DNA of 61,237 nt from a virus: positions 1-61,237 of IMG/VR virus record IMGVR_UViG_3300042939_000506. The stretch is one strand, 5' to 3'. Below are positions 42,699-56,629 of the stretch, in pieces. The notes under the pieces were generated by a model. The model saw only the letters and a program-made list of their open reading frames with translations. It searched no databases and was not told the origin of the DNA. The position numbers and the translations under genes are program-made. The first letter of the stretch is position 1; every line of letters starts with the position of its first letter.

Positions 42699-43093
42699 TG
42701 CGACTCCTGTTCGCGTCTATAGCCCGGTACAACCTGTCGTTGATCGCTTCCCGGCCCGTAGCCAGATCAGAAGCTCTCGCAGTTGCCGACAGTAAGTACA
42801 GGCCGTGCAGCGGTCAGAGAAGTTTGGTGAAAACGCCACCGAAAGGAGGGAAAGGGGTCACGATGGAAAGTGCCACCGGGTATCAGGGGCGACGGGCCTC
42901 ATCCCCCGACAAGACCCGCCGCCCCTGTGCAGCCGGTTCCCCATCCCCCGACAGGGAGGGCTGCGGCTCTGTGAGCCTCGTCAGAGGCTACCACACATTT
43001 GCTGCTCCCCCGGATGGACTCGAACCATCAACCGCCCGGTGTGCAGTTGTCAGTCCGTCAACCAGCAGTGTCGGGGGGATAGGACCAATAAAC
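42699..43093. other. attP: Phage attachment (attP) region upstream of integrase
   Basis: A 395-base gap. It holds a strong inverted repeat CAGGGGCGACGGG/CCCGCCGCCCCTG (42886-42929), a hairpin AGCCTC-GTCA-GAGGCT near 42976, three copies of ATCCCCCGACA (42901-42911, 42943-42953, and an inverted 12-base version at 43069-43080), and a tRNA-derived segment at 43003-43029. Direct and inverted short repeats flanking a tRNA piece are what integrase arm sites around an attP core look like. The minus-strand capsid promoter candidate TATAGA lies near 42720. Confidence 0.65.
43003..43046 (-). other. Candidate attP core: 3' part of a tRNA gene
   Basis: On the minus strand the sequence reads as a T-arm GATGG-TTCGAGT-CCATC followed by an acceptor 3' strand CGGGGGA, then G and CA. 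A U1:A72-type acceptor with G73 would fit a tRNA-Asn, but that is a guess. No matching D-arm or anticodon stem can be folded upstream, so it is not a working tRNA. It is the kind of tRNA 3' identity that temperate actinophages use to integrate without damaging the host tRNA. Confidence 0.65.
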
Positions 43094-44047
43094 ATGAAGC
43101 GGAAACTAACGAACACCGAGTTTGCTACAAACAGGCAACGATCACTGAAACTTGTTGTGGAAGAAATCAGCGGCAGTGTAATTAATTCAGACGTGCCCAG
43201 ACCCCGCACACACAAACAGAAGTACCTGCTACCACCTGATTGGGAATCCGCCGTCACCGGCTGGATGGTGTGGCTGGCCGCCAGCGGGATGCCCAAAACC
43301 ACCCAACGAACTCGACGCGGACATGTACGAAAAACCGCACGCATGACAACAACCCGTCATCCCCGCGACGTCACCACCGCAATGCTGGTGTCTGTCTGCA
43401 GCGAGGAAAACTGGTCCAACGAACACCGACGGGGAGTTCGCCGTTCACTGATGGCGTTCTTTGAGTGGGCCACCGCACAAGGACTGGTCCCTCACAACCC
43501 CGCCGAGAAGCTGCCCCGCGTTCCTTCCGGCACCCCAAACCCTCGACCCGTACCCAACCCCATGTGGAAACAGATACTCATGGCCGCGCCACCCCGCGAA
43601 AAGATGATGATGCGGCTGGCCGGCGAAGTGGGGATGCGGAGAGCCGAAGTCGCCTGCTGTCACCGCGACGACCTCATCGAAGACCTGTGCGGATGGTCGC
43701 TCATCATCCACGGCAAGGGCAACAAACAACGCATGATCCCTATCCACAACAGGCTGGCCCGCGACATCATGGACTTCTGCGGCCACGGCTACCTGTTCCC
43801 CGGCCAGGACAACGGCCACCTAGCCGCCATGACAGTCGGCAAGCTCGTCGGAGACCTCATGCCACCGGGCTGGTCAATGCACAAACTGCGGCACCGATTC
43901 GCCACCAGAAGTCTTGCCGCCGGGGGCGACCTGCTGGTGGTGCGCGACCTGCTCGGTCACACCAGCGTGGCAACCACCCAGCTTTACACCGCCTCGGTTC
44001 CCGAGAAGATGCGCCGGATCACCGACCTACTCGCTCAGGAGGACTGA
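43094..44047 (+). CDS. int: Tyrosine integrase
   Basis: A 317-residue site-specific recombinase. The catalytic set is complete: Arg182/183 in GMRRAE, Lys in GKGNKQR (208-211), His263 and Arg266 in HKLRHR, His289 in LLGHTSV and Tyr298 in TTQLYT. The N-terminal half is a core-binding domain, preceded by a basic possible arm-binding segment. ATG 43094 has AGGA nine bases upstream. The frame is open upstream through the attachment region to 42740, with another ATG at 42863 behind AAAGGAGG, so a longer Int is possible. It is oriented against the surrounding structural genes. Confidence 0.9.
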   Translation: MKRKLTNTEFATNRQRSLKLVVEEISGSVINSDVPRPRTHKQKYLLPPDWESAVTGWMVWLAASGMPKTTQRTRRGHVRKTARMTTTRHPRDVTTAMLVSVCSEENWSNEHRRGVRRSLMAFFEWATAQGLVPHNPAEKLPRVPSGTPNPRPVPNPMWKQILMAAPPREKMMMRLAGEVGMRRAEVACCHRDDLIEDLCGWSLIIHGKGNKQRMIPIHNRLARDIMDFCGHGYLFPGQDNGHLAAMTVGKLVGDLMPPGWSMHKLRHRFATRSLAAGGDLLVVRDLLGHTSVATTQLYTASVPEKMRRITDLLAQED

Positions 44048-48242: not shown

Positions 48243-48248
48243 TTGTGT

Positions 48249-48713
48249 GTGACCGACACCCTGCACACCACCCGCAATCTGCAGATACAGTTCTGGGTTC
48301 CCGGCACACCGAAACCGCAGGGCTCCAAACGGGCTTTCCAGCACCCGCACACCAAACGCATCGTGATGACCGAAGCGTCCGGGGATGCCCTGCGGCTGTG
48401 GCGGCAGGACGTGAAGATGTTCGCCCATCACGCCATGGACAGCAGAACGCCGTGGGGACCTCCCACCGGCATCTACCTGTCCATCGGGTTTGTGCTGCAC
48501 CGCCCGGTGGCCACACCCAAAACGAAACCGACACCGTTGGCGGTGAAAGTTCCCGACCTGGACAAGCTGACCCGCGGAGTCTGTGACGCCCTGACCGGAA
48601 CCGTCTACAGCGACGATTCCCAGATCGTGTCGTTCAACGTCTGGAAACGCATCGCCGAACGCGACGAGCCCACCGGGGCGCACATCACCGTGGAAACCCT
48701 CGACCTCGCCTAG
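48249..48713 (+). CDS. RusA-like Holliday junction resolvase
   Basis: A 154-residue protein with the RusA signature: FWVPGTPKPQGSKRAF near the start, the acidic cluster PDLDKLTRGVCDAL (Asp103, Asp105, Asp113) and SDDSQI (Asp122, Asp123). It should cleave four-way junctions made during recombination or late replication before packaging. It sits alone on the plus strand inside the leftward structural operon, next to terminase and portal. Confidence 0.85.
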   Translation: MTDTLHTTRNLQIQFWVPGTPKPQGSKRAFQHPHTKRIVMTEASGDALRLWRQDVKMFAHHAMDSRTPWGPPTGIYLSIGFVLHRPVATPKTKPTPLAVKVPDLDKLTRGVCDALTGTVYSDDSQIVSFNVWKRIAERDEPTGAHITVETLDLA

Positions 48714-49229: not shown

Positions 49230-50930
49230 TTACCGGCTGGTGACCGGCAAACCCCCACGTCCGTCGGTAACTTTCCTGGTCAACCATCCCGGCGTGTCGC
49301 GGCCTCCACGATGCAGAGGAGAGGCGTAATTTGCCATCCCCGCCCCCAGCTTGTCCAGGCGGTCATGAGCGATCACCGCCGCGCTCACCCTGTCCGGGCA
49401 GTGCTGCCCAGCCTGCCAGTCGGCAGCCTGGTCGATGAACACGCTCATGATGTGCGGCACCACGCGGGCACGTTTGGTTTCCAATGCCTGCCGCAGACCG
49501 GCAGCCCTCCCCACCGGATCACCGCCGGCAGTCCACTTCACCGTCATGAACGGCGGTGTCGGGGACAGCGCACGCTGCTCGACCTCCGACAGGGACTTGC
49601 CTGTCGCCAGCTTCTCCCGCGCCTTCTTGTGCATCGCCCCGTAGGCGTGCTTGACCACCGCCGCATAGGTGGTGAACGTGGCGAAACCTTCCAGAGCGAT
49701 CTCCCTGGCTCCCAACCGCAAAGCCAGATCGACAGCCTTCTGCGCCCACTGCTCGGAGGTGTAAAGCCCAGACACGTCGTCGGTGAACACGATGGAACCG
49801 TCCCCACCCAGGACCGCACCCAGGATGCCGGTCTCATCCCCCTCACCGGAGTCGGCGGGATCAACCCCCACCACAGCGGCGACCGGGTAGTCGGGGAACG
49901 GAACCGGAGGATCGAACCAGGCACGCTCAAAGAGCCCACCGGCAGGGTTGGTCGGCATCCCCTGGTACAGCGCGTACCAGACACGCTCACCGACCTGGCG
50001 GCGGGTCTGCTCAAACTCCTGCTTGCTGCGTCGGCGAGCCGACACCATCACCGTGCCCGGTTTCCGGTTCAGCGCGTCCGGCACACCCTTCTCCGAGATC
50101 GCCGGAATGTTCAGGTAACGCCAGGTGCGCTGCTCCTTGGGCAGTTCGGCCTCAGCCGCCATCACCTTTCCGGCCAGATCCTCCGGGTGCCAGCGAGTCT
50201 GAATGAGGATCATCGACGCTTCCGGCGACAGGCGGGTCATGGCCACCGACGCCATCCACATGTCCACCTTCTCCCGGTGAGTCATGGAGTCGGCTTCCTG
50301 CATGTTCTTGTACGGGTCGTCGATGATGAACAAGTCGGCGGGACGCCCGGTGATCGCCGACCCCAGGCCGACGGCCACCAGACCGCCTTTCGCGTTGTCG
50401 ATGCGCCAGGCGTCAATACGGCGGGACTTGGAGGACAGTTTCAACCCCAGCTTGTCCTCGACGCGAGCCCCGGTCATCGGGTCGATCACGTCGGTGCCGT
50501 GCGCCTCGATCACCGACCGGCAGTTGGTGGAGTGGGTGTGCGCCAGATCGTCGCCGTAGGAGGCCAGAATGATGCGTCGGTTCGGGTTCAACTGCCAGGC
50601 CCGGATCGGAGTCCACACCGCGCACAGAGTGGACTTGCCTTCCTGCGGTGGCATCGTGACGAGCAGGTTGTGGCGAGGCTTGCTCAGCGTCTGCTCGATG
50701 GCATCCGCGATGGTCTGCAGGGCCGGGGTGATGTGGAAGTCGGGATCAACAGCGGCGGCGATCTCGGCGGCGTTGCGGTACTGGGTGCGGATACGTTCGC
50801 GGGTCGCCGCGGATTCCAGGTACGCCAGAATCGCGGCTTTCTGCTCCGGGGGCCAGCCTTTCGTTTCCTCGTAGATCCGGGCGACTTGATCGCTGGAAAA
50901 GGTGCCGTCTAGCGGCGGTAATGAGGCCAT
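49230..50930 (-). CDS. Terminase large subunit
   Basis: A 566-residue packaging motor. Walker A is MPPQEGKS (93-100), Walker B is LFIIDD (200-205) and the RNase H-like nuclease starts at GVDPADSG (Asp357). ATG 50930 is chosen over an upstream start because TAGCCT lies seven bases before it. It is the most upstream gene of the leftward structural operon. No separate small subunit gene is recognised next to it; the HNH gene is divergent on its other side. Confidence 0.92.
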   Translation of the reverse strand: MASLPPLDGTFSSDQVARIYEETKGWPPEQKAAILAYLESAATRERIRTQYRNAAEIAAAVDPDFHITPALQTIADAIEQTLSKPRHNLLVTMPPQEGKSTLCAVWTPIRAWQLNPNRRIILASYGDDLAHTHSTNCRSVIEAHGTDVIDPMTGARVEDKLGLKLSSKSRRIDAWRIDNAKGGLVAVGLGSAITGRPADLFIIDDPYKNMQEADSMTHREKVDMWMASVAMTRLSPEASMILIQTRWHPEDLAGKVMAAEAELPKEQRTWRYLNIPAISEKGVPDALNRKPGTVMVSARRRSKQEFEQTRRQVGERVWYALYQGMPTNPAGGLFERAWFDPPVPFPDYPVAAVVGVDPADSGEGDETGILGAVLGGDGSIVFTDDVSGLYTSEQWAQKAVDLALRLGAREIALEGFATFTTYAAVVKHAYGAMHKKAREKLATGKSLSEVEQRALSPTPPFMTVKWTAGGDPVGRAAGLRQALETKRARVVPHIMSVFIDQAADWQAGQHCPDRVSAAVIAHDRLDKLGAGMANYASPLHRGGRDTPGWLTRKVTDGRGGLPVTSR

Positions 50931-50937
50931 AAGACAC

Positions 50938-50943
50938 AGGCTA
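50938..50943 (-). promoter_or_regulatory. -10 box TAGCCT of terminase gene
   Basis: TAGCCT ends seven bases before ATG 50930. It would start the main late operon and is back-to-back with the early promoter at 50971. Confidence 0.5.
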
Positions 50944-50970
50944 GGGATACACCGTGCCAAACCGGGAGTT

Positions 50971-50999
50971 GATAAAATACCTCCACAAGACTGCATTAT
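50971..50999 (+). promoter_or_regulatory. Early-type promoter of HNH operon (copy without hairpin)
   Basis: Matches the early promoter family: GATAAA or overlapping TTGATA as -35, spacer motif ATACCTCC ending CTG, and -10 CATTAT (50994-50999). The leader hairpin is absent because ATG 51011 follows within 12 bases. Confidence 0.6.
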
Positions 51000-51010
51000 G
51001 AAAGGGCACG

Positions 51011-51463
51011 ATGGGACTGTCGAACTACAACGGATTCTCAGGCAAACTCCGCGAAGCCAGCCTGCGCCGCGTCCACAAACTCTGGGCCAGCGGCGAAGTA
51101 CCCCGCCCTGTCAAATGCGATGCCTGCTACCAAACCGAAGGCACCATCCACGGCCACAGCGAGGACTACAGCAACGACCACATCCACCTGCCGCTGTGCA
51201 TCACTTGTCACCTGCTGCTGCACATGCGCTGGCAGATGCCGAACATGTGGGAGGACTACAAGCTCGCCGTCCGGTCAGGATTCCGTGGCCGGCCCCTGGA
51301 ACAGAAGAACGCCCTCTACGTCATCAAGAACATCTACCCCGACGAAATGTACCAAGACGCAAACTACATCAACGACGAACGCTCAGCCACCGTCCTCGAC
51401 ATGATCTGCCCGATCAAGTTCATCCACCCCAACTCCATCGGATTGGGAGGAAACGATGACTGA
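51011..51463 (+). CDS. HNH endonuclease-like protein beside terminase
   Basis: A 150-residue protein with a zinc ribbon/HNH core: CDACYQTEGTIHGHSEDYS, then HLPLCITCHLLLH, where the two CxxC pairs bind zinc and the histidines are candidate catalytic residues. HNH proteins adjacent to terminase often take part in DNA packaging cleavage. Here the gene is on the opposite strand, under an early-type promoter. Confidence 0.75.
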   Translation: MGLSNYNGFSGKLREASLRRVHKLWASGEVPRPVKCDACYQTEGTIHGHSEDYSNDHIHLPLCITCHLLLHMRWQMPNMWEDYKLAVRSGFRGRPLEQKNALYVIKNIYPDEMYQDANYINDERSATVLDMICPIKFIHPNSIGLGGNDD

Positions 51464-51671: not shown

Positions 51672-51846
51672 CCTCCGTGAGCGGATCGCCGCCGCTGTTG
51701 TGGAGAAGCTGTCCAAACGGCGGGATGGGCGCGTGGAGTTCTCGCCTTATGACGTGGCCGACGCGGTGATCGCGGAACTGGGTTTACGCCAAGAAACCGT
51801 TGGCCTCATCCACCGCTGGGTCACCGACTGGAAGGCCGACGAATGA
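51664..51846 (+). CDS. Small hypothetical protein, 60 aa (tandem paralogue B)
   Basis: Has MSDLRERIAA, ADAVIAELGL and WVTDWKADE in the same order as its upstream neighbour. ATG 51664 lies just inside the previous gene and its end overlaps the next start by ATGA. Confidence 0.65.
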   Translation: MSDLRERIAAAVVEKLSKRRDGRVEFSPYDVADAVIAELGLRQETVGLIHRWVTDWKADE

Positions 51847-52490
51847 CCGCGCAACTGGAACTGTTCACTCCCGCCCAACTCACACCCGCAGGCCCGGCCT
51901 ACGAACGCGAACGGTACTGGGGTATCGCCATTTGCCACCCCGGCGGCTGGGGACGAGACACCGACGAACCCACCGACACCTGCCGCCCCACCCTCCTGTC
52001 ACTGGACATGCGCTGCAACTGCTGGAACCGCCGCGGCGAAGAACGCTGCCAGTGCGTCGGCTACTACCTGTTTCGGGGTTCCTGCCGGGGGTGCAGCTGG
52101 TACGGCCCCGCCCGCACCAGCGAAGACGCCGCCGTCTACGACACCCACGACCACTGCTACCCCGGCTGGCGAGAACTGCCCGTCATCATCGGCCCCATCC
52201 CCGAAACCGGCAGCGGCAAAAAAGGCACAAGCATCGACTCCTTCATCGCCCGGCTGGAATCCATCGGCTACCCGCCAGGATGGATACAGGCCGGTGGACC
52301 CATCCGCGAACGCCGACAACAAGGCGGCACCCGCGCCCACACCGTCCACACCGGATACGGCAACTACACCATCTGCGGAGAAGTGGTCGGCTGCTGCCTG
52401 AGCATCGGCATGAACAGCTGCGAAGGACTGGACCGCTGCCTCACCGGCAGATGCACGCCCTACGAGTTCCCCGATCAGGAAATCGAGTAG
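51843..52490 (+). CDS. Hypothetical cysteine-rich protein, 215 aa
   Basis: Contains at least ten cysteines (RCNCWNRRGEERCQC; GSCRGCSWYG; a C-terminal CLTGRC), suggesting two or three zinc sites. The pattern W-(G/N)-x-C with aromatic residues is found in other actinophage early proteins of unknown function. Coupled to the preceding gene by ATGA. Convergent with the GNAT gene, overlapping it by 16 bases. Confidence 0.65.
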   Translation: MTAQLELFTPAQLTPAGPAYERERYWGIAICHPGGWGRDTDEPTDTCRPTLLSLDMRCNCWNRRGEERCQCVGYYLFRGSCRGCSWYGPARTSEDAAVYDTHDHCYPGWRELPVIIGPIPETGSGKKGTSIDSFIARLESIGYPPGWIQAGGPIRERRQQGGTRAHTVHTGYGNYTICGEVVGCCLSIGMNSCEGLDRCLTGRCTPYEFPDQEIE

Positions 52491-52858
52491 ACCAGCCGCG
52501 AAGCACCATGCTGCGTCGGACCCCGGTCCTCAAACCCGGCCCGTAACGCCCAGCGTTTGTCCCACGACAGAATCTCCACTTCCTTGAACCGGGCACTGAC
52601 CGCGTACTGCAGGCACGCCTGAGACACCTCGTCCCCCAACCCCATTCCGCGGAAATCCGGCCTCACCCAGACAGCCCGAATCCGGGCCTTCGTCGAACTC
52701 ACCGGAGCCACCCCCGCAAAACCGGTGATCCGGCCCTTGGAGTTGACCGTCTTGAACCACACGCAATCCTTCACCTGGGTCACGTTCACCCGCTCCTTCG
52801 CCGCAAGAGCGGCGAAAGGAGCGATCTCCTTCCAGGTGGCCCTCTCCACCGCCATCAT
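52475..52858 (-). CDS. GNAT-family acetyltransferase
   Basis: A 127-residue protein with the GNAT acetyl-CoA-binding motif A (RAVWVRPDFRGMGLGDEVSQ; the R.G.GLG loop) and a C-terminal strand VEILSWDKRWALRAGF. The substrate is not predictable. It is the last gene of the ParB/PAPS-reductase operon, coupled by an ATGA overlap, so it may modify a partner or nucleotide used by that system. Confidence 0.8.
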   Translation of the reverse strand: MMAVERATWKEIAPFAALAAKERVNVTQVKDCVWFKTVNSKGRITGFAGVAPVSSTKARIRAVWVRPDFRGMGLGDEVSQACLQYAVSARFKEVEILSWDKRWALRAGFEDRGPTQHGASRLVYSIS

Positions 52859-53400
52859 TCCGCCTTCGGATACCAAGCTTGCGAATACGCCCACTTGTTG
52901 ATGCTGCGGGCACTGAACACGCCCTCCTGGGCGAGCAGATCCACTTCCTCCTTGGTGCCGCCGATCTCGGCGGCGATCACATCACGCGCCACACCGTGCT
53001 CTTCGATCAGCTCCCGCACAATTGCGCTCATCTCCACCGCGATATGCGACCCCTTGGCCCGGTTGATCCGAATCGTCATCAACATCGCCGTGGGCCGGTC
53101 CACATCTAGCACCGCCACCGGAACCCGGCCCTTCCAACGAGCCCGGATTCGATCACTGTCCTGACTCAACCGCCATCGGTGAAACCCGTCGATGATGAGC
53201 CGGTCGGGGTTGACCAGCAACGGCTGCAACCACCCGGTAGACAGCACGCTCCGCTCAAGCAACCGCAACTCTGCAGCGTGCACCCGGTTCGGATTCCAGG
53301 TGTTGGGGTCGAGGGTGTCTGCCGGCACCCATCGGATGTGGTCAACGGGATCTCCCTCCGCAGCATCCAAACGGGGCAACCCCGCCGCGTTCACCGTCAC
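52855..53400 (-). CDS. ParB-like protein, IbrB type
   Basis: A 181-residue protein with the ParB/Srx nucleotide-binding fold. It shows the LDPNTWNPN entry, SVLSTGWLQPLLVNP and the signature IIDGFHRWR (Asp71, His74, Arg75), then TIRINRAKGSH. Proteins of this type pair with PAPS-reductase-like IbrA in phages and enteric bacteria; the IbrA-type gene is immediately upstream and overlapping. It is unlikely to act in plasmid partition, since there is no ParA. Confidence 0.82.
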   Translation of the reverse strand: MTVNAAGLPRLDAAEGDPVDHIRWVPADTLDPNTWNPNRVHAAELRLLERSVLSTGWLQPLLVNPDRLIIDGFHRWRLSQDSDRIRARWKGRVPVAVLDVDRPTAMLMTIRINRAKGSHIAVEMSAIVRELIEEHGVARDVIAAEIGGTKEEVDLLAQEGVFSARSINKWAYSQAWYPKAE

Positions 53401-54491
53401 GACGCCTTCTCCTTACGGGCCTGCTGCTGAGCAACACTGAGCGCGGTGATTGCTCGCTTATAAGCACCCGCCATGAACTGACCCAACACGTAATCCGGCG
53501 GGTACGAGTCGGGGGTTTCCACCGCCTTGGACCGCACATGACCCAACTCTTTGAGAGCCTTGGCACGCTGCACCTCGTCGTCGATGGTGTCCTCCACCCA
53601 CGCCTGCACCCCGTCATAGGACTGCCCGTACCGGGCGAACATGCCCGCCCGGTCCAGTTCGTGGTAGTACCGCTCCTGCACCGCCATTTCGGGGAACAAC
53701 TGCAGCAACTGGTCGTAGAACACCGGGGCGTAAGCCCTGGTGTTACCCAGCCGTTTAGCCCGCTCCGCGTGCAGCGGGGTCGACACCCGCAACGGCTCCT
53801 TGCTCAGCAGCTGCGAGTCATAGATCGGGCAGTAGCGGATGTCCCGGTCATAGAAGTACCGGAACACATCGTTCTCCTGCCAGTCGAAAATCGGCTTGGC
53901 GGTCATCACCCGCTTCTCGGCGGTGGTGTTGATGTAGTTCTCCGTCAGCTTCGCGGTCATCGCCCGAAACCGCATCAGCGACTCCGCGGCCCGGACCCCC
54001 GTCACGATGGCGACCTTGCCCTTCTCGTCACGGGCAGCCAGAGTGTCCATCGTGTACTGATCCAGCACCAGACGCCGATCCAAACACAGCTTCTCGGAGG
54101 TCAACGCGAAATCGGGGATCGGGCGCAGATGAGGTCGATCCGGGTCCCACTGGATATAGCGGGTCGAGGTCCCCAGAATGTACTTCGTCGATTCCAGCGG
54201 CACGCAGTACCACCGCATGTCGATCCAGTCCTTGCGGCGGTACTCGTCAACGAAATCCACCACCGCGTCCGGTATCAACTCCTCATCGCGGAACACCACC
54301 TTCACCGGGCGGCGGTCCCCCCGCTCCAACGCCACCTCACGCGCCAGATGCAACGTCACCAGCGAGTCCTTACCCCCGGAGAACGCCACCAGCACCGAAT
54401 CGAACACGTCGTAGATGTGGTGCATCCGCTTGACCGCCTCGGTCAGCACATCAGAGTCGATGAACCCCTTCACATGCTTGATCCGTTTCAC
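53397..54491 (-). CDS. PAPS-reductase-like PP-loop ATPase, IbrA type
   Basis: A 364-residue protein with the PP-loop AFSGGKDS (36-43), a central SEKLCLDRR and TGVRAAES, and a C-terminal DUF3440-like part (GQFMAGAYKR). PP-loop enzymes adenylate substrates, often in sulfur or nucleobase chemistry; DndC in DNA phosphorothioation belongs to this superfamily. IbrA/IbrB pairs are known as regulators of immunoglobulin-binding genes in E. coli, and their chemistry is unresolved. Starts at GTG 54491, overlapping a small gene by GTGA. Confidence 0.85.
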   Translation of the reverse strand: MKRIKHVKGFIDSDVLTEAVKRMHHIYDVFDSVLVAFSGGKDSLVTLHLAREVALERGDRRPVKVVFRDEELIPDAVVDFVDEYRRKDWIDMRWYCVPLESTKYILGTSTRYIQWDPDRPHLRPIPDFALTSEKLCLDRRLVLDQYTMDTLAARDEKGKVAIVTGVRAAESLMRFRAMTAKLTENYINTTAEKRVMTAKPIFDWQENDVFRYFYDRDIRYCPIYDSQLLSKEPLRVSTPLHAERAKRLGNTRAYAPVFYDQLLQLFPEMAVQERYYHELDRAGMFARYGQSYDGVQAWVEDTIDDEVQRAKALKELGHVRSKAVETPDSYPPDYVLGQFMAGAYKRAITALSVAQQQARKEKAS

Positions 54492-54643
54492 GGCAAACGG
54501 CCCTCATCGACCAGGTGCTGCACGATCCGGCAGGACAGCGCATAGGACTCAGCCGGCGTTCCGTAGGCGTGTTCAAGGAAATACATGTCGACCACGACCT
54601 GCACCGCCCGGATCGTGTCGAGCATGTCATCGACCCCGCCCAT
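54488..54643 (-). CDS. Small hypothetical protein in IbrA/ParB operon, 51 aa
   Basis: Begins MGGVDDMLDTIRAVQ and reads to LVDEGRLP. It is bounded by an ATGA overlap upstream and a GTGA overlap downstream, exactly filling the space between the ParB-like and PAPS-reductase-like genes. It is helical and amphipathic, possibly an adaptor. Easily missed because of its length. Confidence 0.7.
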   Translation of the reverse strand: MGGVDDMLDTIRAVQVVVDMYFLEHAYGTPAESYALSCRIVQHLVDEGRLP

Positions 54644-55302
54644 CACATCACCGACGCGATGTAGTCACACAGACGTTGCGGCATTGTGGAGTCGGGGTCC
54701 TTGCGCTTCAACCAGCCGATGAAGTCGGTCCACACCTTCTTCTGCTTCTCATCGTCGAACACGATGGAGTAGCTGATGATTGACTGGCCGCGGTTGTTGA
54801 TCGGTTCCTCGTCATCATCGTCACCGGACAAATCGTCAATGTCCACGGTCACCGGCTCAGGCACCGACAGCAGCGCATCCAGATCCTCGGCGGTGTAGCC
54901 CAAACCGGTCAGATCGTCGGACACGTCAGAAAGCAGCGAAGCCAACTCCTTGTTGTCGTAACGGCCCTTCTCAGCGGTGCGGTTATCAGCCAGGACGATG
55001 CGTGCCGCCTGGTCCTCATCCACATCGACCCAATGCACCAGGATCGCGTTCCACCGCTCATCCTCAGGGTGGCGTTGCGCCAGCTGACGGAACGCTTTCA
55101 ACGTGTGGTTACCCGCCAGAACCTCAAACCGCCGCCCGGTGTGCGTCCCGATATTGGCCACAATCGGGCGGTACTGGCCGTGAGCCTTGAGGCTCGCGGC
55201 CACCGCCCCCACATTCCCCCGGCGCGGGTTACGACCGTAAATCCGCAGCGCCGACGGTGCCACAGACGAGGTTGTTTCCGGTGTCACATCGGTGTCAGCC
55301 AT
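54643..55302 (-). CDS. ParB-like nuclease-domain protein (paralogue 2)
   Basis: A 219-residue protein whose first 130 residues are ParB/Srx-like: ALRIYGRNPRRGNVGAVAAS, then LAGNHTLKAFRQLA and VLADNRTAEKGRYDN. An acidic linker (DDLSGDDDDEE) leads to a C-terminal domain ending DPDSTMPQRLCDYIASVM. It is a close paralogue of the next gene, sharing GTHTGR, HWVDVD and FDDE. Expected to bind CTP or a related nucleotide, possibly with nuclease activity. Confidence 0.8.
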   Translation of the reverse strand: MADTDVTPETTSSVAPSALRIYGRNPRRGNVGAVAASLKAHGQYRPIVANIGTHTGRRFEVLAGNHTLKAFRQLAQRHPEDERWNAILVHWVDVDEDQAARIVLADNRTAEKGRYDNKELASLLSDVSDDLTGLGYTAEDLDALLSVPEPVTVDIDDLSGDDDDEEPINNRGQSIISYSIVFDDEKQKKVWTDFIGWLKRKDPDSTMPQRLCDYIASVM

Positions 55303-55979
55303 CAGACCCGGCTCCCCTCGGTCTCATTCAGGTGGGAAACCACCCGTTCGGCCAACGTCAAATCCGGGTCCGGGTACTGGTCCTTCAACCACTTCACAAA
55401 CGCGAACCACATCTCCTGCTGCGGCTCGTCGTCGAAGGTGATCGTGAAGCTGATCGCTGACTCCGACGCCGGCCCCAACACCGGAGGTTCCAACTCCGGG
55501 TCCTCCTCAGGAGGCTCGACATCCGGGGCGGCGGGACGGTCCAACGTCGCTTCCAGAGCATCCAGGTCAGCGTCGGAATACCCGGTGCCGGTGGTGCCGA
55601 CCTCACCCAGCAGCGCGACCAGAGTGTCGGTGTCGAACTCACCGGCATCGAAGCTGCGGTTGTCCACCAGCACGATGCGGGTGGCCATGTCGTCATCCAC
55701 ATCGACCCAATGCACCGCCACATGAGCCCACCGCTGATCGAACGGGTTCTGCTCAGCCAGGTCGCGGAACGCCTTCAGCGTGTGGTTTCCGGCCAGCACT
55801 TCATTCGGTCTGCCGGTGTGCGTCCCGATGTTGACTACCAGCGGCTTGAACTGGCCGTTGGCTTTCAGGGAACCGGCTATCGCATCGACATCCCCGATGC
55901 GGGCGTTGCGGTGAAACACCGACAGTTCTGATGGTTTGACGAGCGTCGTGGTGCCGACAAGCGGCGAGGTTGAGGCCAT
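55302..55979 (-). CDS. ParB-like nuclease-domain protein (paralogue 1)
   Basis: A 225-residue protein with the same domain order as its downstream neighbour: SELSVFHRNARIGDVDAIAG, LAGNHTLKAFRDLA, VLVDNRSFDAGEFDT, an acidic proline-rich linker, and a C-terminal FDDEPQQEMWFAFVKWLKDQ domain. It is first in the operon. ATG 55979 lacks a ribosome binding site but has TACCGT seven bases upstream. Confidence 0.8.
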   Translation of the reverse strand: MASTSPLVGTTTLVKPSELSVFHRNARIGDVDAIAGSLKANGQFKPLVVNIGTHTGRPNEVLAGNHTLKAFRDLAEQNPFDQRWAHVAVHWVDVDDDMATRIVLVDNRSFDAGEFDTDTLVALLGEVGTTGTGYSDADLDALEATLDRPAAPDVEPPEEDPELEPPVLGPASESAISFTITFDDEPQQEMWFAFVKWLKDQYPDPDLTLAERVVSHLNETEGSRV

Positions 55980-56044: not shown

Positions 56045-56101
56045 TAGACAATACCTGCGGGAGTCTGTATTATCAACAGACCAGGCAGGGAAACACCCGC
56101 C
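56045..56101 (+). promoter_or_regulatory. Early promoter with leader hairpin (copy 5)
   Basis: A -35 TAGACA (56045-56050), a 17-base spacer with ATACCTGC and CTG, a -10 TATTAT (56068-56073), and the leader hairpin GGCAGGG/CCCGCC (56084-56101). It drives the six small genes 56120-58057. Confidence 0.8.
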
Positions 56102-56119: not shown

Positions 56120-56629
56120 ATGTCCTCTCCACCCACACTGCTCAACGAGACACTGAGCGAGGCGCGTAAAACCTTCCTCCACGAACTGTTCACCACCGCC
56201 CTGGAAGGCGGAATCGGGTACTGGTCACAGTGCAGCGAATACCACTGGGCACTTCCCGACATCGCCACTGGCCCCGCCGAGGACATCGACGGCTTCTACG
56301 CCATCATCCATCCCGTCGAAGGCGGCTGGGGTGTGTTCGGAGATCCTGACGGCACCGTCGGAGACTGCGACGAGGACAAGCAGCCCCTACGCATTGACCT
56401 CCCCGTCATCCACCGCGGAGCCCGGCTGATGAGCCTCTACGTCCAGGGACTCGTTGACGGCAAAGGCCAGCCCGTTCCCCTCGACCAGATCAAACCCTGG
56501 CGCGAGGACCACTACCACTGGCAGTACGTCACCGCCTACAACACCAACGGCAAAGACGGCGACTACGACGCCGACACCGCCGACATGATCGTGCAGTGGG
56601 GCCTGTTCGGAGAGGTGGTCTACGGATGA
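56120..56629 (+). CDS. Hypothetical early protein, 169 aa
   Basis: First gene of the 56-58 kb early operon, with AGAAAGGAAAA upstream of the ATG. The protein is acidic and aromatic-rich (GGIGYWSQCSEYHW, EDHYHWQYVTAY). Similar proteins are common as early unknowns in actinophages; no enzymatic motif is seen. Confidence 0.7.
   Translation: MSSPPTLLNETLSEARKTFLHELFTTALEGGIGYWSQCSEYHWALPDIATGPAEDIDGFYAIIHPVEGGWGVFGDPDGTVGDCDEDKQPLRIDLPVIHRGARLMSLYVQGLVDGKGQPVPLDQIKPWREDHYHWQYVTAYNTNGKDGDYDADTADMIVQWGLFGEVVYG

What the first reader, a model, noticed from the sequence alone, without database searches (positions are those of the whole stretch)
52475..55979. Coupled operon of three ParB-like proteins, an IbrA-type PAPS-reductase, a 51-aa protein and a GNAT enzyme
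Six genes overlap by a few bases in the order ParB-ParB-51 aa-PAPS reductase-ParB-GNAT. IbrA/IbrB pairs are known, but this set has two extra ParB paralogues, a tiny protein and an acetyltransferase in one transcript. No ParA or partition site is seen. PP-loop enzymes plus nucleotide-binding ParB folds suggest a nucleotide- or DNA-modifying, or defence/counter-defence, system.
Basis: partly seen in the sequence, partly recalled or inferred. Interest (0 to 1): 0.72.

Follow-up and report, generated by a model that had tools for sequence, protein, structure and literature searches.

The report
Phage DNA-modification-like cassette, swappable cap
A tightly overlapping set of six genes beside a bacteriophage's DNA-packaging gene belongs to a widespread phage gene cassette whose last enzyme is either an acetyltransferase or a methyltransferase but never both, which suggests an unrecognised way of chemically decorating phage DNA.

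Summary
In detail: ParB1-ParB2-51 aa-PP-loop(PAPSR)-ParB3-GNAT lie on the minus strand at 55979-52475 with 1-4 bp overlaps. They belong to a larger cassette common in phages. Across 63 non-redundant loci the core ParB-A, PP-loop enzyme and ParB-B (IbrB-like) is nearly constant. The next slot holds either a GNAT (22) or a small SAM-methyltransferase (26), never both (P about 2e-7), with at least 7-8 switches on the PP-loop tree. The window's closest relative, an M. abscessus prophage 75% identical in the PP-loop enzyme, carries the methyltransferase. Retrieval from the other side shows that the parts are dedicated: 53/54 methyltransferase loci and 74/74 ParB-B loci with enough flank hold the PP-loop enzyme. 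The core is homologous to IbrA/IbrB. It is neither ParABS nor Dnd: no ParA, no parS, no conserved cysteines, no desulfurase. The PP-loop fold is closest to FAD synthase and CysD, which adenylate their substrates. Best reading: a late DNA-hypermodification cassette in which the PP-loop enzyme activates and the GNAT or methyltransferase caps. Chemistry is inferred. I found no description in the held literature.

The parts
55302..55979 (-). ParB-A copy 1 (ParB/Srx-fold protein with conserved C-terminal domain), 225 aa
   Evidence: phrog_723 E 6e-63; 66% identical to prophi79-1 gp92; 48% identical to ParB2
54643..55302 (-). ParB-A copy 2, 219 aa; same domain as the N-terminus of phage ParB-methyltransferase fusions
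   Evidence: phrog_723 E 3e-61, phrog_498 'DNA methyltransferase' E 6.5e-26; PADLOC MTase_II E 2.9e-6
54488..54646 (-). small protein, 51-52 aa, not conserved
   Evidence: no family hit above cut-off; no similarity to the small proteins in the same slot of relatives
53397..54491 (-). PP-loop (PAPS-reductase-like, IbrA superfamily) enzyme, 364 aa; SGGKDS motif
   Evidence: phrog_2302 E 5e-127; 56-60-sequence alignments; model pLDDT 93.5; best solved folds FAD synthase Z 16.8, CysD Z 15.1, APS reductase Z 14.4
52855..53400 (-). ParB-B (IbrB-like), 181 aa; N-domain plus HTH M-domain region
   Evidence: phrog_2159 E 5e-79; profile aligns to both domains of solved ParB/Noc; IbrB homologue E 6e-28
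52475..52858 (-). GNAT acetyltransferase, 127 aa, the variable 'cap' slot
   Evidence: PF00583 E 4e-9; model pLDDT 97, best solved match 5yge (ArgA-type amino-acid acetyltransferase), Z 16.9; same slot holds a methyltransferase in relatives
51011..51463 (+).
   Evidence: present in 45 of 63 clusters; 63% identical to prophi79-1 gp100 'HNH endonuclease'; 59 of 72 loci found by HNH alone also hold the PP-loop enzyme
49230..50996 (-). terminase large subunit, the neighbour beside which the cassette usually lies (context, not a member)
   Evidence: 68% identical to prophi79-1 terminase; terminase near the cassette in many loci
56048..56076 (-). promoter-like site upstream of ParB1, in the divergent intergenic region (weak)
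   Evidence: consensus scan: 2 found in the region, 1.2 expected

Best explanation
The operon is a late-expressed phage DNA-(hyper)modification cassette, with the HNH-like zinc protein as a further member and the terminase as its neighbour. ParB-B (IbrB-like) and ParB-A would use nucleotide-switched DNA binding to bring the enzymes onto phage DNA. The PP-loop enzyme would adenylate a group on a base, or less likely a phosphate, so that a nucleophile, more probably an amine or amino acid than sulfur, can be attached. The GNAT in this phage, or the unrelated small methyltransferase in its relatives, would then cap the new group with an acetyl or a methyl before packaging. Shown here: cassette membership, order, dedication of the parts, mutual exclusion and repeated swapping of the last enzyme, folds, lack of invariant cysteines, terminase proximity. 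Inferred: DNA as substrate, adenylation of a base, amine nucleophile, capping order, late timing, protection from restriction.
For: (1) Non-redundant PP-loop loci (63): 22 GNAT, 26 methyltransferase, 0 both; hypergeometric P(0 both) 1.8e-7. A ParB-B-anchored set of 80 (overlapping in contigs): 26 GNAT, 39 methyltransferase, 0 both. (2) GNAT/MT state changes at least 12 times on the PP-loop tree; well-supported branches alone force 7-8; the window (GNAT) is sister to a prophage with MT, support 97. Two unrelated group-transfer enzymes trading one slot is what alternative caps on a common intermediate would look like. (3) Dedication: MT loci 53/54 and ParB-B loci 74/74 with enough flank hold the PP-loop enzyme; HNH loci 59/72, most of the rest cut by contig ends. 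(4) ParB-A is the domain fused to phage DNA methyltransferases (phrog_498 E 6.5e-26; PADLOC MTase_II). Published surveys report ParB folds in phages fused to N6_N4 and Methyltransf_23 domains and, in a bacterium, to an acetyltransferase (PMC12704722), and ParBc genes beside a proven phage base modifier plus AMP-forming ligase (CmoX/CmoY, PMC12783734). (5) PP-loop fold nearest FAD synthase and CysD, which adenylate an oxyanion (chemistry from established knowledge). (6) A distant PAPSR in Microbacterium phage Hendrix lies in a row glucosyltransferase-methyltransferase-N-acyltransferase-PAPSR. (7) One HNH-like relative without the PP-loop enzyme sits beside a ParB and an SNF2-N6_N4 DNA methylase.
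Against: No DNA, nucleoside or phenotype data exist here. The methyltransferase has no DPPY-type or SPPC motif (0 of 24), so it is not a standard DNA methylase and could act on a protein, RNA or small molecule. The GNAT shows no detectable similarity to Mu Mom and its nearest folds acetylate amino acids and proteins. IbrA/IbrB are annotated, after published genetics, as co-activators of gene expression. 15 of 63 clusters lack both caps (5 of these have short flanks), so the core can act without one. No supplier of an unusual precursor was identified in the record, although not every gene was classified.
Confidence: 0.52

Rival explanations
1. IbrA/IbrB-like transcriptional co-activator: ParB-B binds DNA and, with the PP-loop protein, switches on late genes; the other enzymes tune it.
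For: Homology to phage IbrA and IbrB; ParB-B aligns to the HTH region of ParB/Noc; the cassette sits at the head of the minus-strand terminase side.
Against: Does not explain swapping of an acetyl- for a methyltransferase, or the dedicated HNH-like protein; SGGKDS and many other positions are invariant, which points to catalysis.
Confidence: 0.13
2. Packaging accessory: the cassette marks or prepares the packaging site or concatemer for terminase, with the HNH protein as nickase.
For: Terminase nearby in many lineages; HNH-like protein between cassette and TerL in the window and prophi79-1.
Against: Some relatives have the cassette with no annotated terminase beside it (Rhizobium phage RHph_I4; Bacillus phage 022DV001, though there the record ends).
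Confidence: 0.12
3. Sulfur chemistry: a phosphorothioation-like or thiolation system, PP-loop enzyme as DndC-like sulfurtransferase.
For: Weak DndC and BrxP matches; PAPS-reductase domain.
Against: No invariant cysteine in 60 sequences (best column 54/60, with Ala or Ser in the rest); DndC score 24.8 against a cut-off of 290; no cysteine desulfurase in the record.
Confidence: 0.07
4. Counter-defence or host takeover acting on a non-DNA target (tRNA, protein or nucleotide pool): the PP-loop enzyme makes a small molecule or modifies tRNA, and the GNAT or MT finishes it.
For: GNAT closest to ArgA and protein acetyltransferases; MT lacks DNA-methylase motifs; PP-loop enzymes often act on tRNA or small molecules (established knowledge).
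Against: ParB-fold proteins with DNA-methylase links and terminase proximity point to DNA.
Confidence: 0.14

Closest known systems
IbrA/IbrB pair (annotated 'co-activators of prophage gene expression')
   Same: Homologous PP-loop and ParB-B proteins in the same order; Faecalibacterium phage FP_Taranis also has ParB-IbrA-IbrB before terminase
   Different: Window PP-loop gives no DUF3440 match and belongs to phrog_2302, not phrog_424; plus cap enzyme and HNH-like protein
CmoX/CmoY phage cytosine hypermodification with ParBc neighbours (PMC12783734)
   Same: SAM-dependent enzyme plus ATP-using, AMP-forming activating enzyme plus ParB-domain gene
   Different: Different enzyme families as far as described (AMP-forming ligase, C5-cytosine transferase with SPPC motif); no GNAT alternative described there
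Dnd/Ssp phosphorothioation
   Same: PP-loop PAPSR-like enzyme and a ParB-superfamily protein (DndB)
   Different: No conserved cysteines, no desulfurase; DndD/DndE-type partners not seen among the recurring neighbour families
Phage Mu Mom
   Same: GNAT-type enzyme in a phage; Mom is annotated as acting just before packaging
   Different: No detectable sequence similarity; no PP-loop/ParB neighbours in the stretch read
prophi79-1 (M. abscessus prophage) and cluster B mycobacteriophages (Morty007, Casbah)
   Same: Same core operon beside terminase
   Different: Methyltransferase in place of GNAT (prophi79-1) or no cap enzyme (cluster B)

Membership tests
IbrA/IbrB | PP-loop protein homologous to IbrA beside a ParB protein homologous to IbrB | tested here: met
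   hhalign E 2.3e-25 and 6.4e-28 against the CHPC1230 pair
IbrA/IbrB | DUF3440 C-terminal domain (carried by the Hendrix PAPSR) | tested here: not met
   Pfam scan of the window protein gives PF01507, plus a weak PF01171, and no PF11922; the Hendrix PAPSR has PF11922
IbrA/IbrB | activates transcription of target genes | not testable with these tools
   needs RNA-seq of a deletion mutant
ParABS partition | ParA ATPase partner | tested here: not met
   PF13614 absent from the record, found in 14/14 controls
ParABS partition | parS sites | tested here: not met
   1 site with 3 mismatches, 1.3 expected
ParABS partition | TIGR00180 above curated cut-off | tested here: not met
   ParB3 16.8 bits against 58.45; no hit for ParB1/2
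Dnd phosphorothioation | DndC equivalog score | tested here: not met
   24.8 bits against 290.4
Dnd phosphorothioation | conserved cysteines for Fe-S/sulfur transfer | tested here: not met
   no invariant Cys in 60 sequences
Dnd phosphorothioation | cysteine desulfurase in the cluster | tested here: not met
   PF00266 absent; a host enzyme could substitute
PAPS/APS reductase (CysH) | equivalog score | tested here: not met
   TIGR02057 25.6 bits against 254.2
Mom DNA modification | sequence similarity to Mu Mom | tested here: inconclusive
   hhalign probability 0.3%, one Mom sequence only
Phage DNA hypermodification cassette | modified nucleoside in virion DNA | not testable with these tools
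   needs LC-MS
Phage DNA hypermodification cassette | co-encoded activating enzyme, group-transfer enzyme and DNA-targeting protein | tested here: met
   PP-loop + GNAT/MT + ParB across 48 of 63 clusters; the DNA-targeting role of ParB is inferred
GNAT superfamily | GNAT fold and acetyl-CoA-binding R/QxxGxG/A motif | tested here: met
   RGMGLG in the sequence; Z 16.9 to 5yge; PF00583 above cut-off

The most novel reading that the evidence does not exclude
A previously undescribed class of phage DNA base modification built as 'core plus interchangeable cap': an adenylating PP-loop enzyme, steered by ParB-fold proteins, attaches a group to DNA, and phages repeatedly exchange an acetyltransferase for a methyltransferase to change its outer chemistry, presumably to evade modification-sensing nucleases.
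Probability: 0.36. Interest if true: 0.85.

Novelty: new variant of a known kind. Interest (0 to 1): 0.62.

Why it matters
It gives IbrA/IbrB-type genes, which are widespread in phages and mostly annotated as a metabolic PAPS reductase and a partition protein, a concrete testable role, and it suggests that many such annotations are misleading. The GNAT-for-methyltransferase swap is a natural experiment that predicts which chemical group changes between sister phages. The core also occurs in easily grown phages of M. smegmatis and Arthrobacter, so one mass-spectrometry run could settle it.

Tried and rejected
Partition system: no ParA, no parS excess, ParB below TIGR00180. Dnd-type sulfur modification: cysteines not conserved, no desulfurase. 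Mom-type GNAT: no similarity found. Standard DNA methylase in the MT slot: no DPPY/SPPC motif. Gene fusions as clues: only ParB-ParB tandem fusions, plus a split terminase match in L002; none joining cassette enzymes. An apparent ParB-B/MT fusion in L113 was an ORF-calling artefact: two separate genes. A 2013 survey of phage base-modification systems (Nucleic Acids Research gkt573) was looked for and is not held, so prior description there cannot be excluded. hhalign with the Hendrix GNAT and MT gave no significant match, so that cassette is an analogy, not homology, for those two parts. Foldseek against viral models listed only generic acetyltransferases for the GNAT.
Full report
Observation. 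The window is a 61,237-bp virus record, by its genes a temperate actinobacterial phage (integrase, DNA polymerase, primase-helicase and endolysin genes; 62.6% G+C). The six reported genes are real, on the minus strand, with 1-4 bp overlaps: ParB1 55979-55302, ParB2 55302-54643, a 51/52-aa protein to 54488, a PP-loop enzyme 54491-53397, ParB3 53400-52855, and a GNAT whose best start is the ATG at 52858 (ATGA overlap with ParB3), ending 52475. Family matches are strong for all but the small protein.

Relatives. The nearest annotated locus is the M. abscessus prophage prophi79-1: ParB, ParB, small protein, PP-loop enzyme, small protein, ParB, methyltransferase, HNH protein on the other strand, terminase. 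Identities to the window are ParB1 66%, ParB2 66%, PP-loop 75%, ParB3 83%, HNH protein 63%, TerL 68%, but the GNAT is replaced by an unrelated methyltransferase. Cluster B mycobacteriophages have ParB, small genes, PP-loop, ParB, terminase and no cap; Arthrobacter phage Wheelbite has ParB, PP-loop, ParB, methyltransferase, TerS, TerL; Bacillus phage 022DV001 has ParB, PP-loop, methyltransferase, then ParB; Rhizobium phage RHph_I4 has ParB, ParB-domain protein, PP-loop, ParB.

Survey. PP-loop-anchored searches of IMG/VR and of one-genome-per-species contigs, with the annotated loci, gave 103 loci, 63 after clustering the PP-loop enzyme at 90% identity. ParB-A and ParB-B are near universal. The cap slot holds a GNAT in 22 clusters, a methyltransferase in 26, neither in 15 (5 of these have under 2.5 kb of flank), both in 0; with random pairing the chance of no overlap is 1.8e-7. 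On the PP-loop tree the GNAT/MT label needs at least 12 changes, and strongly supported branches alone force 7 for GNAT and 8 for MT; the window (GNAT) pairs with the M. abscessus type (MT) at support 97 (a quick-search tree without bootstrap). Swapping is therefore recurrent and recent.

A missed member. Neighbour clustering found a 45-locus family with CxxC...H.EDY...CxxCH...H. Its window member is 51011-51463 (+). Pfam does not recognise it above threshold, but the prophi79-1 homologue is annotated as an HNH endonuclease. It is present in 41 of 48 clusters with a cap enzyme and 4 of 15 without.

Dedication. Independent retrieval asked whether the parts live alone. Of methyltransferase loci with enough upstream flank, 53 of 54 carry the PP-loop enzyme; the exception, L141, has a ParB-A/ParB-B chimera in place of the middle genes. 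All 74 ParB-B loci with enough flank carry it, although the 80 listed are the best of 301 relatives, so distant members are untested. Of 72 HNH loci, 59 carry it; most of the other 13 are cut by contig ends. One true exception, L278, has the HNH-like gene beside a ParB and an SNF2 helicase-N6_N4 DNA methylase.

Enzymes. The PP-loop model (pLDDT 93.5) is closest to FAD synthase (Z 16.8), CysD (15.1) and APS reductase (14.4); rows within 1 Z are tied, and a shared fold does not prove function. SGGKDS is invariant. No cysteine is invariant, which argues against a DndC- or CysH-like sulfur mechanism, as do the scores far below NCBIfam cut-offs and the lack of a desulfurase. The GNAT model (pLDDT 97) best matches an ArgA-type amino-acid acetyltransferase and other amino-acid or protein acetyltransferases; most members share a stretch around V24 and W34. 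The methyltransferase has a SAM-binding DLGxSTGLL motif and invariant ARR and GR positions but no DNA-methylase motif. ParB-B spans the N-domain and HTH region of solved ParB and Noc and is an IbrB homologue. ParB-A matches the N-terminal domain of phage DNA methyltransferase families.

Interpretation. Two unrelated group-transfer enzymes alternating in one slot, next to an activating enzyme and DNA-methylase-linked ParB proteins beside terminase, is best explained as a late DNA-modification cassette with interchangeable caps. Precedents from the literature: ParBc genes co-occur with the proven cytosine modifier CmoX and its AMP-forming ligase (PMC12783734), and ParB folds fuse to methyltransferases in phages and to an acetyltransferase in a bacterium, with ATP, CTP or GTP binding (PMC12704722). 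Microbacterium phage Hendrix strings glucosyltransferase, methyltransferase, N-acyltransferase and a PAPSR, though its GNAT and MT are not detectably the same families. That DNA is the substrate, and that the step is base adenylation followed by amine attachment and capping, are inferences.

Limits. Homologue sampling was anchored on conserved peptides; contig ends hide some neighbours; ORFs were called mechanically; the literature library lacks an older survey that may bear on this and the original IbrAB paper. No chemistry was tested.

Noticed in passing
window 42740-44047 (+): An integrase gene (phrog_1, E 2e-38) lies on the + strand inside a run of minus-strand genes, so the phage is probably temperate.
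   Followed up: no
window 51843-52490 (+): A DUF6349 protein (E 1.4e-32) converges on and overlaps the 3' end of the GNAT gene by 16 bp.
   Followed up: no
L278:1053-3239: SNF2-like helicase fused to an N6_N4 DNA methylase, with a ParB gene upstream and the HNH-like zinc protein downstream: another ParB-linked modification set.
   Followed up: partly
L125:2098-5646: Microbacterium phage Hendrix: glucosyltransferase, methyltransferase, N-acyltransferase and DUF3440-bearing PAPSR in one overlapping row at the genome end, a likely separate DNA-modification cluster.
   Followed up: partly
L002:2696-5236: Morty007 terminase (846 aa) matches TerL in two separated blocks (33-277 and 513-846), consistent with an intein.
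   Followed up: no
L141:3094-3624: One ORF joins the N-part of ParB-A to the C-part of ParB-B with the PP-loop gene gone: deletion derivative or assembly chimera.
   Followed up: no
window 48243-48713 (+): RusA-type Holliday junction resolvase gene (E 3.4e-13) on the + strand just beyond TerL.
   Followed up: no
window 56045-56076: Divergent promoter-like sites on both strands between ParB1 and the gene at 56120.
   Followed up: no
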